From Spirochaetota bacterium (GTDB lineage Bacteria; Spirochaetota; Spirochaetia; SPDA01; B32-G16), in the NCBI GenBank assembly GCA_003645645.1, contig QNBH01000009.1, forward strand, positions 1-40,847: a stretch of DNA of 40,847 nucleotides, written 5' to 3'. The notes below the pieces were generated by a model. That model saw nothing but the letters and a program-made list of their open reading frames with translations, did not search any database and was not told where the DNA came from. The translations under genes were made by a program, and so were the position numbers. Shown here one piece after another: positions 4,871 through 12,926 of this stretch (position 1 is its first letter; every line of letters begins with the position of its first letter).

Positions 4871-4882
4871 ATGAGTAGATGA
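4871..4882 (+). other. Three-codon minicistron ahead of fabF
   Basis: ATG AGT AGA TGA (Met-Ser-Arg-stop) begins 4 nt after an AAGGAG ribosome site at 4861-4866. Its TGA overlaps the fabF ATG in an ATGA junction. The ribosome site is close to this ATG and 12 nt from the fabF ATG. A TAG codon directly precedes the fabF ATG in frame, so fabF cannot be extended upstream. Translation of the minicistron may help deliver ribosomes to fabF. Confidence 0.4.
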
Positions 4883-6120
4883 GCGATCGAAGGATAGTTA
4901 TTACTGGAATGGGAGTAATATCCCCGAATGGTATTGGTAAGGAGGCCTTCTGGAATGCAACTATAAATGGGAAATCGGGAATTTCAAAAATAGAATCTTT
5001 TGATCCATCCAGGATACCGACAAAAATAGGTGGAGAGGTTAAAGAGTTTGATCCATCTCCATGGATCGATGAGAAGACGGAAAAAAGGGTAGATCGAAAT
5101 ATTAAGTTTGGCCTTTGCACAGCCCGAATGGCATTGGAAGATGCAGGCTTGGATTTGAGCTCCGATGAAAAAGCCCTTAATACGGGCGTTATAATAGGTA
5201 CTGCAGTCGGGGGGCAGGGATATATGCTTGAACAGGATGCCATTGTTCACCAAAAGGGCCCCATGAAGATTAGTCTTTTCTCTGCTCTGAACTCATTTCC
5301 AGACGCCTGTGCCGGACAGATCGCTCTTCTTGCAGGCATAAAGGGGCCAAACTTTGCAGTTTCAACAGCCTGTTCTTCTGCTCTGGATGCCATAGGGGTG
5401 GGCCTTAACTACCTGCGCAGCGGTAGGCTTTCATGTGTTATTACCGGTGGCAGCGAAGCACCCATATTCGAGCCTATATTTGCTGCCTTCTGCAAGATAC
5501 ATGCCATGAGTACAAGAAACGATGAACCTGAGAAAGCTTCCCGCCCTTTTGATAAAGGCAGGGATGGATTCGTTATGGGAGAGGGGGCAGGAATGTTTGT
5601 ATTGGAAGATTACGAGCATGCCCGCAAGAGAGGAGCGAAGATTTATGCCGAGATATTGGGGTACGGGACGACCTGCGATGCCTATCATATGACCATGCCT
5701 CACCCGGAAGGAGAGCAAGCCGTTCGAGCGATTAATCTTGCCCTTAAAGAGGCAGAAATATCACCGGATGAGGTCGATTACATCAATGCCCACGGTACCT
5801 CCACCCCTTTAAACGACAAAACAGAAACTCTCACAATAAAAGAAGTTTTTAAAGAAAGGGCTAAATCCATCCCTATAAGCGCTGTTAAATCGATGATCGG
5901 TCATCTCATAGGCGCTGCGGGAGCTGTAGAACTTGTTGCGAGTATTCTCACAATAGAGAGAGGAGTAATTCCGCCCACTATCAATTACGAAGAACCGGAT
6001 CCCGAATGTGATCTGGATTATGTTCCCAATCAGGCAAGAGAAAAAGATGTCAAGGTGGTGGTAAAAAACTCCTTCGGTTTCGGGGGTAAAAACTCCGTTC
6101 TTGTAATAAAGAAAGTGTAG
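4879..6120 (+). CDS. fabF: Beta-ketoacyl-ACP synthase II
   Basis: This 413-residue condensing enzyme elongates acyl-ACP with malonyl-ACP in type II fatty-acid synthesis. The N-terminal RRIVITGMGVISPNG is typical. The catalytic triad is intact: Cys in VSTACSSALDAIG, His in YINAHGTSTPLND and His in KSMIGHLIGAAGA. The glycine-rich end NSFGFGGKNSVLV is also present. It stands alone, without acpP or other fab genes, and is convergent with nrnA. Its start overlaps a three-codon upstream reading frame, which may affect translation. Confidence 0.96.
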   Translation: MSDRRIVITGMGVISPNGIGKEAFWNATINGKSGISKIESFDPSRIPTKIGGEVKEFDPSPWIDEKTEKRVDRNIKFGLCTARMALEDAGLDLSSDEKALNTGVIIGTAVGGQGYMLEQDAIVHQKGPMKISLFSALNSFPDACAGQIALLAGIKGPNFAVSTACSSALDAIGVGLNYLRSGRLSCVITGGSEAPIFEPIFAAFCKIHAMSTRNDEPEKASRPFDKGRDGFVMGEGAGMFVLEDYEHARKRGAKIYAEILGYGTTCDAYHMTMPHPEGEQAVRAINLALKEAEISPDEVDYINAHGTSTPLNDKTETLTIKEVFKERAKSIPISAVKSMIGHLIGAAGAVELVASILTIERGVIPPTINYEEPDPECDLDYVPNQAREKDVKVVVKNSFGFGGKNSVLVIKKV

Positions 6121-6136
6121 TGTTAGAGGAGAGTCT

Positions 6137-6314
6137 ACTACGAAAGAAGGCCAACACCTATGGTGGTGGTCCACCGGTTGAAAAACCGGTGGAGAGACGG
6201 GCTTAAGCCTTCTACCTTCTTTCGGAGTATACAACCACCTGAGTAATTTCTGCAATGCGGAAATTACTTAGCCCTTGCAAGGCTTGCAAAGCCTTAGGCT
6301 TTGCCTGTGGTTGT
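6137..6314. other. Highly structured non-coding region between fabF and nrnA
   Basis: Two adjacent modules, each under 95 nt, fold into branched structures. Module 1 (6137-6228) is closed by a 14-bp stem with one mismatch (6137-6150 with 6215-6228). Inside it are an 8-bp hairpin with one mismatch (6151-6169) and a perfect 9-bp stem capped by a GAAA tetraloop (6171-6192). Module 2 (6231-6314) is closed by 8 bp (ACAACCAC with GTGGTTGT). It holds a 15-bp hairpin with two G-T wobbles (6239-6271) and a perfect 8-bp hairpin with a TTA loop (6286-6304). No U-tract follows. It could be a small RNA, a palindromic repeat element or an unusual bidirectional termination region. Confidence 0.6.
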
Positions 6315-6333
6315 TAACGGCGATAGGGGAGGA

Positions 6334-12461: not shown

Positions 12462-12533
12462 AGCGGGAAACGGGATTTGAACCCGCGACATCCACCTTGG
12501 CAAGGTGGAGCTCTACCACTGAGCTATTCCCGC
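12462..12533 (-). tRNA. tRNA-Gly (GCC)
   Basis: The cloverleaf reads GCGGGAA/TTCCCGC in the acceptor, GCTC/GAGC in the D arm, CCACC-TTGCCAA-GGTGG in the anticodon arm and GCGGGTTCAAATCCCGT in the T arm. The anticodon is GCC. CCA is not encoded. Confidence 0.97.
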
Positions 12534-12560
12534 ATTGTTTGCAAGCTTCTAAACTATAGA

Positions 12561-12642
12561 TGCGAGAGAAGGGATTTGAACCCTTACGCCCGAAGGCACC
12601 AGATCCTAAGTCTGGCGTGTCTGCCAATTTCACCACTCTCGC
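12561..12642 (-). tRNA. tRNA-Leu (TAG)
   Basis: A class II tRNA of 82 nt with a long variable arm (TGCCTTCGGGCG). The acceptor is GCGAGAG/CTCTCGC with discriminator A, and the anticodon loop CTTAGGA gives TAG. CCA is not encoded. Confidence 0.97.
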
Positions 12643-12683
12643 ATCCAATTATAACCACGGGTGCATTTTCTGTCAATTAAATA

Positions 12684-12756
12684 TGAGCCGTGAAGGGATC
12701 GAACCTTCGACCCGCAGATTAAGAGTCTGCTGCTCTACCGGCTGAGCTAACGGCCC
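12684..12756 (-). tRNA. tRNA-Lys (CTT)
   Basis: The acceptor is GGGCCGT/ACGGCTC (one wobble) with discriminator A. The anticodon stem GCAGA/TCTGC encloses CTCTTAA, giving CTT. The T arm GAAGGTTCGATCCCTTC is canonical. CCA is not encoded. Confidence 0.97.
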
Positions 12757-12771
12757 ATATTTCTTTAAGGA

Positions 12772-12845
<74 letters not shown>

Positions 12846-12852
12846 ATATCCG

Positions 12853-12926
12853 GGTGGGTAACGGGACTTGAACCCGCAACGGCCAGATCCACAGTCTGGT
12901 ACTCTACCTCTTGAGCTATACCCACC
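12853..12926 (-). tRNA. tRNA-His (GTG)
   Basis: The acceptor is GTGGGTA/TACCCAC with the tRNA-His-specific extra G at position -1 (12926) opposite discriminator C. The anticodon loop CTGTGGA gives GTG. It is the first gene of the five-tRNA operon. A TTGACA (12967-12972, minus strand) lies upstream, but no good -10 box is obvious. Confidence 0.97.

What the first reader, a model, noticed from the sequence alone, without database searches (positions are those of the whole stretch)
6137..6314. Twin branched RNA-like structures between convergent fabF and nrnA
Two consecutive modules (92 and 84 nt) each have a closing stem and two internal hairpins: 14-bp closing stem, 9-bp stem with GAAA tetraloop, 15-bp hairpin, 8-bp hairpin and 8-bp closing stem. 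This density of long helices, including a GNRA loop, is far beyond a simple terminator pair and there is no U-tract. It may be an undescribed small RNA, a palindromic repeat family or a mobile miniature element.
Basis: seen in the sequence. Interest (0 to 1): 0.6.

Follow-up and report, generated by a model that had tools for sequence, protein, structure and literature searches.

The report
Gene-less jumping element with branched ends
The paired fold between two bacterial genes is one of about 70 copies of a 180-letter mobile DNA element without genes; it inserts right after the letters TTTAC and probably relies on a single-strand transposase made elsewhere, so it is a new family of a known kind of parasite rather than a new RNA.

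Summary
In detail: 6130-6320 folds at -90 kcal/mol (z -9.2) as two adjacent branched modules. It is not a one-off RNA. The same genome holds about 70 dispersed copies with unrelated flanks, in two full-length subfamilies (184 and 188 bp) plus short, mosaic and hairpin-inserted forms.

Copies share exact termini: TTTAC|TACGAAAGAA...GGTGGTTGTTTAC|. Empty copies of a second repeat show precise insertion 3' of TTTAC, with a pyrimidine at +1 (55/63) and no terminal inverted repeats. These are hallmarks of IS200/IS605-type single-strand (HUH Y1) transposition. The terminal hairpins match those of IS200 elements: tnpA remnants in this genome and a multicopy IS200 in a class relative (right end GGTGGTTGTTGAC|T in 10 copies).

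Helices are kept by compensatory changes between copies. The branched left end recurs, with further compensatory changes, in at least four other genera of the class, and weakly in three more.

Best reading: a new, structurally elaborate family of palindrome-associated (PATE-like) non-autonomous IS200/IS605 elements. The window copy is decayed at both junctions (TCTAC, TTAAC). Which transposase drives it is unproven: the local IS200 tnpA copies are dead, and the other carrier genomes showed no relative.

The parts
6134..6138 (+). left target pentanucleotide, TCTAC here (family consensus TTTAC), belonging to the flank
   Evidence: 55 of 63 complete copies have TTTAC here (the pattern used favours TTTAC, but 'TT' also precedes nearly all BLAST-found copies); empty sites in repeat R2 retain TTTAC
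6139..6318 (+). the element: non-autonomous IS200/IS605-type (PATE-like) transposable element, subfamily A
   Evidence: about 70 copies in own genome, unrelated flanks, same ends
6142..6223 (+). left-end module: closing stem 6142-6150/6215-6223 around three hairpins
   Evidence: fold; pairs kept in 44 copies and in relatives of other genera
6151..6169 (+). left-end hairpin 1 (CCACCACC..GGTGGTGG in consensus), counterpart of the IS200 left hairpin
   Evidence: family consensus is identical at 23 of 27 positions to the left end of a G023 IS200 copy, 0/500 shuffles as good
6171..6192 (+). left-end hairpin 2, GAAA loop here
   Evidence: compensatory changes in subfamily B and G093; loop not conserved
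6195..6213 (+). left-end hairpin 3
   Evidence: consensus structure
6231..6314 (+). right-end module: closing stem 6231-6238/6307-6314 around the 15-bp hairpin 6239-6271 and the 8-bp hairpin 6286-6304
   Evidence: covariance model R1 finds about 70 loci
6314..6318 (+). right cleavage site, TTAAC here (family consensus TTTAC)
   Evidence: TTTAC in 51 of 63 copies; same terminus in IS200 copies: own C96 ..GTTGTTTAC|T, G104 ..CCTTTAC|T, and nearly so in G023 ..GGTGGTTGTTGAC|T in 10 copies
4879..6120 (+). fabF, left neighbour
   Evidence: TIGR03150
6334..7317 (-). NrnA-like gene, right neighbour
   Evidence: NF053633 E 1.7e-21, below its cut-off

Best explanation
The feature is one decayed copy of a non-autonomous transposable element that moved by single-strand IS200/IS605-type transposition. 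Inferred mechanism: when the top strand is single-stranded (for example on the lagging-strand template), the left-end and right-end palindromes fold; a Y1 HUH transposase supplied in trans binds them, cuts 3' of TTTAC at both ends, joins the ends into a circle, and inserts it 3' of a new TTTAC followed by a pyrimidine. Shown here: many copies, exact shared ends, empty sites, target rule, conserved and covarying hairpins, likeness of both ends to IS200 ends. Inferred: the folding strand, the circle, and which enzyme acts. At this locus the element now only sits between two convergent genes, where it may incidentally act as an mRNA 3'-end structure.
For: About 70 dispersed copies with unrelated flanks. 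End motifs far above reversed controls: 91 vs 2 and 78 vs 0. Repeat R2 gives empty sites ..GTTTTTTTAC|CTAAATTTTT..; filled copies read ..TTTTTTTAC|TACGAAAG (L018, L072) and ..GTTGTTTAC|CAAAATTTTT (L114, L116). Target YTTTAC|Y, +1 T39 C16 A6 G2; end deviations uncoupled. IS608 likewise inserts 3' of TTAC kept in the left flank and disfavours a purine at +1 (PMC5934647). Right end aligns with the own-genome IS200 remnant C96 over 35 nt through the terminal TTTAC, 0/300 shuffles as good; G023 IS200 ends GGTGGTTGTTGAC|T, 12 of 13 identical. Left hairpin 23/27 identical to a G023 IS200 left end. Covariation 0.158 vs 0.113 +/- 0.004 shuffled. End-to-end copies (L071, L111) fit insertion into the TTTAC of a right end.
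Against: No intact cognate transposase seen: the IS200 tnpA at C272 has an in-frame stop, a frameshift and HUH changed to HIR, and C96 is 5'-truncated. The seven other genomes with related left ends showed no relative of this TnpA. The C272 left flank lacks a recognisable TTTAC. No significant strand bias against GC skew: 26 vs 23 copies. The IS608-like guide AAAG is present near the left hairpin but lies inside the closing stem, and no clear right guide was found.
Confidence: 0.82

Rival explanations
1. A REP/REPIN-like repeat mobilised by one of the two RAYTs (TnpA-REP) of this genome, at C68 or C233.
For: Both RAYT genes look intact (NF047646-like, 170 and 341 aa) while the IS200 tnpA copies are dead. 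The C233 RAYT is flanked by direct repeats ending GGTTTAC and GGATTAC. RAYTs are Y1 enzymes too.
Against: REPs are 20-40 bp palindromes with GTAG on the 5' side of the hairpin (PMC3733652, PMC8266576); here the palindromes lack a 5' GTAG, the element is about 184 bp with two unlike ends and a TTTAC target, and neither RAYT gene is bordered by these ends. The ends resemble IS200 ends.
Confidence: 0.12
2. A structured non-coding RNA or mRNA 3'-end element, kept for its RNA fold.
For: Very stable fold and compensatory changes. The window copy sits 16-20 nt from the stop codons of two convergent genes. IS605 stem-loops have been taken over as RNA elements at the ends of Borrelia lipoprotein genes (PMC2775950).
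Against: Copies lie in co-directional (34), divergent (10) and convergent (5) gaps; both strands fold; no Rfam family at threshold; no promoter-like site; precise insertion at TTTAC needs transposition. Not exclusive with the best reading for single copies.
Confidence: 0.04
3. A classical MITE of a DDE transposase with a 5-bp TTTAC target duplication.
For: TTTAC stands at both junctions and once in empty sites.
Against: The ends TACTACGAAAG and (reverse) GTAAACAACC are not inverted repeats; the pentanucleotide is nearly fixed instead of varying with the target, and its deviations at the two ends are not coupled.
Confidence: 0.02

Closest known systems
PATEs, palindrome-associated transposable elements (Haloquadratum, PMC3119063; one case in Halanaerobium, PMC7290912)
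   Same: no terminal inverted repeats, near-terminal palindromes, no coding capacity, conserved terminal oligonucleotide that is the target, core-deleted short forms, ends like IS200/IS605 transposons, insertion of other small repeats into them
   Different: each end is a closed multi-hairpin structure and not one hairpin; bacterial; left-end architecture kept across several genera
IS200/IS605 insertion sequences, IS608 type
   Same: insertion 3' of T(T)TAC kept on the left flank, purine disfavoured at +1, subterminal palindromes at both ends, AAAG near the left hairpin
   Different: no tnpA inside; right cleavage site is the same TTTAC as the target (IS608: TCAA)
Free-standing IS605 stem-loops of Borrelia plasmids (PMC2775950)
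   Same: IS605-type stem-loops dispersed without transposase, some next to gene ends
   Different: single stem-loops, without defined two-ended mobile units or empty sites
REP / REPIN elements with RAYT (TnpA-REP)
   Same: multicopy extragenic palindromes linked to Y1 transposases
   Different: 20-40 bp, GTAG-tagged, not IS200-like two-ended elements with TTTAC target
Bcr1 of Bacillus cereus (listed among bacterial MITEs in PMC3733652; its size and TTTAT flanks are from my memory only)
   Same: as remembered: about 155 bp, dispersed, complex fold, pentanucleotide TTTAT at the ends
   Different: other bacteria; no sequence comparison made

Membership tests
PATE (non-autonomous IS200/IS605-type element) | no terminal inverted repeats but palindromes near both termini | tested here: met
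PATE (non-autonomous IS200/IS605-type element) | no target duplication; conserved terminal oligonucleotide acts as target | tested here: met
   empty sites with one TTTAC; uncoupled deviations of the two pentanucleotides. A duplication of a fixed TTTAC cannot be told apart formally.
PATE (non-autonomous IS200/IS605-type element) | too short to encode a transposase | tested here: met
   39-260 bp units
PATE (non-autonomous IS200/IS605-type element) | ends related to those of an IS200/IS605 transposon | tested here: met
   the C272 left flank itself lacks a clear TTTAC
PATE (non-autonomous IS200/IS605-type element) | mobilised in trans by a Y1 transposase | not testable with these tools
   no intact cognate gene found; needs an assay
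IS608-type mechanism | guide tetranucleotide 5' of each palindrome pairs with the cleavage site | tested here: inconclusive
   AAAG near left hairpin 1 as in IS608, but inside the closing stem; no clear right guide (read)
IS608-type mechanism | preference for the lagging-strand template | tested here: inconclusive
   26 vs 23 by local GC skew, 14 vs 7 at |skew|>0.06; short contigs
REP/REPIN with RAYT | 20-40 bp palindrome with GTAG 5' of the hairpin, RAYT bordered by the repeat | tested here: not met
TnpB omega-RNA or IS110 bridge RNA of a parent transposon | TnpB or IS110 recombinase in the genome | tested here: not met
   no PF07282 and no PF02371 match in the assembly
Known Rfam RNA family | match above the gathering score | tested here: not met
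Classical DDE MITE | terminal inverted repeats | tested here: not met

The most novel reading that the evidence does not exclude
The branched, multi-hairpin ends are a distinct recognition and control form of Y1 transposition: in the closed fold the AAAG guide is buried in the closing stem, so refolding could gate cleavage. The elements may be driven by a transposase not yet recognised, since carriers in up to seven other genera of the class showed no relative of the local IS200 TnpA.
Probability: 0.15. Interest if true: 0.6.

Novelty: new variant of a known kind. Interest (0 to 1): 0.42.

Why it matters
It turns an apparent orphan RNA into a mobile-element family with defined ends, target and empty sites. 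It shows that IS200/IS605-type non-autonomous elements can carry elaborate branched ends that are kept by compensatory change across genera; such copies are easily mistaken for structured RNAs. It gives a concrete substrate (two 90-nt ends, TTTAC target) for testing how Y1 transposases recognise complex folds.

Tried and rejected
(1) Bridge-RNA or omega-RNA remnant: no IS110 and no TnpB in the genome. (2) GNRA-loop RNA: loop not conserved. (3) Rfam: only tRNAs in the window, and a sub-threshold match of 17.7 bits to a toxic sRNA family on the minus strand, taken as chance. (4) Parent element with tnpA between these exact ends: none among orphan left or right ends fetched. (5) Exact left-end pattern in 85,000 species: one hit (L124, Leptospirales MAG), without a right end, taken as chance. 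(6) BLAST with subfamily A in 41 relatives found nothing outside the own genome; subfamily B in 395 class genomes gave two weak hits, of which L226 looks like chance and L225 proved to be a real homologue. (7) Strand-bias test by GC skew: inconclusive. (9) Whole-class search with the left-end model scored only 10 candidates per genome, so copy numbers elsewhere are unknown.

Full report
What is in the sequence. Window 6130-6320 folds at -90.1 kcal/mol against -52.5 +/- 4.1 for shuffles, z -9.18; as single-stranded DNA the top strand reaches z -11.2 and the bottom z -9.5. Two modules stand side by side. The left one is closed by 6142-6150/6215-6223 and holds three hairpins in the family consensus. 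The right one is closed by 6231-6238/6307-6314 and holds a 15-bp and an 8-bp hairpin. It lies between convergent fabF and an NrnA-like gene.

It is a dispersed repeat. A BLAST of the region against its own genome (3.98 Mb, 380 contigs) gave about 40 copies at 84-93% identity. Motif searches gave 91 left ends against 2 for the reversed control, and 78 right ends against 0. A covariance model of the right module finds about 70 separate loci. Sixty-three complete units were collected: subfamily A (mostly 184 bp, the window copy), subfamily B (185-188 bp, different interior), 158-bp deletion forms, copies with a roughly 55-nt extra hairpin, and units of 61-74 bp. Flanks are unrelated.

It is mobile. 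Nearly every copy is preceded by TT, giving TTTAC|TACGAAAG on the left and GTTGTTTAC| on the right. A second repeat, called R2 here, has at least 40 copies, most of them empty at this site..AGATTTTGTTTTTTTAC|CTAAATTTTTAAACGCG... Filled ones read ..GTTTTTTTAC|TACGAAAG (L018, L072) or ..GTTGTTTAC|CAAAATTTTTAAA (L114, L116). The insertion is exact, 3' of TTTAC, and adds only the element. Across 63 units the target is YTTTAC|Y (+1: T39, C16, A6, G2), and departures from TTTAC at the two ends are not coupled. There are no terminal inverted repeats. Two cases of one element abutting another at the right-end TTTAC were seen (L071, L111). The 63 were collected with patterns that contain TTTAC, which favours it; the BLAST-found set shows the same TT without that bias.

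Which kind of mobility. IS608 inserts 3' of TTAC, keeps it on the left flank, and disfavours purines at +1 (PMC5934647). PATEs are defined by near-terminal palindromes, no inverted repeats, no duplications and a conserved terminal oligonucleotide that is the target (PMC3119063). The present element meets these points. In its own genome, PF01797 finds two IS200 tnpA remnants and two RAYTs. The remnant at C96 has a right end that aligns over 35 nt with the element's right end through the terminal TTTAC (score 20, shuffles at most 18). A relative of this TnpA (67% identical) in class genome G023 exists in at least ten copies, all ending GGTGGTTGTTGAC|T; G104 ends ..CAGGTGGATCCTTTAC|T. The left hairpin of the element is identical at 23 of 27 positions to the left end of a G023 IS200 copy. 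TnpB and IS110 are absent.

The fold is kept. In 44 full-length copies 97.5% of cells pair, and the covariation score is 0.158 against 0.113 +/- 0.004 in shuffles and at most 0.063 in slid versions. Much of this is the A/B subfamily split, but single copies also show double changes. A left-end covariance model finds the branched module in G093, G001, G006 and G002 at E about 2e-10 or better, and weaker ones in G207, G165 and G153. Aligned to the model, 27-31 of 30-33 pairs hold in the first four with 4-8 double changes (the alignment leans to the structure). Several are complete elements with the same logic: G002 ends GTCGTTTAC|T, G207 and G165 end GCAGGTGGTCTTTTAC|Y, G093 has TTTAT at both ends. 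G001 shows no right end.

What is not shown. No intact transposase with these ends was found. The C272 tnpA has a stop, a frameshift and a lost HUH histidine, C96 is truncated, and the seven other carriers had no match to this TnpA in the class search. An intact copy may be missing from a fragmented assembly, may have been lost, or a RAYT or another Y1 enzyme may act. No strand bias could be shown.

Verdict. The structure is real and strong, but it belongs to a non-autonomous IS200/IS605-type element, closest to PATEs, with unusually branched ends conserved across genera. The window copy has lost the consensus at both cleavage sites (TCTAC and TTAAC) and is probably immobile.

Noticed in passing
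L125-L136 around 1501-1598, L018 1910-2142: A second dispersed repeat (R2, at least 40 copies) with an A/T-rich hairpin AGATTTTGTTTTTT..AAAAAACAAAATCT; many contigs start or end in it; several copies carry the element at the same TTTAC. Its own nature was not determined.
   Followed up: partly
L029, L034, L036, L039, L104, L115: Copies with an extra hairpin of about 55 nt (CCTGTGGAATAATCGCCTCC..AAGCTTATTCCACAGG) at one place in the right module: perhaps a still smaller repeat that targets the element.
   Followed up: no
L100 4190-5600: A RAYT gene (341 aa) between direct repeats CTAGGGTCAGAGGTTTAC and CTAGGGTCAGAGGATTACA.
   Followed up: no
L080 1840-1890 (downstream of the 170-aa RAYT): GTAGTAAACAAAATC followed by a hairpin, resembling a GTAG-tagged REP and part of repeat R2; the RAYT may serve R2.
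   Followed up: no
L088 1082-1235, L110 right end near 1957 of the reverse strand, L113 near 2023: A third interior type sharing the element's ends, with GGTGGTGGATACAGGCTT..CTCGAGCRGC.
   Followed up: no
L207-L216 (genome G023): An IS200 in at least ten copies with identical right ends, followed by T in every case; contigs break inside it.
   Followed up: partly
window 12462-12925: A cluster of five tRNA genes on the minus strand.
   Followed up: no
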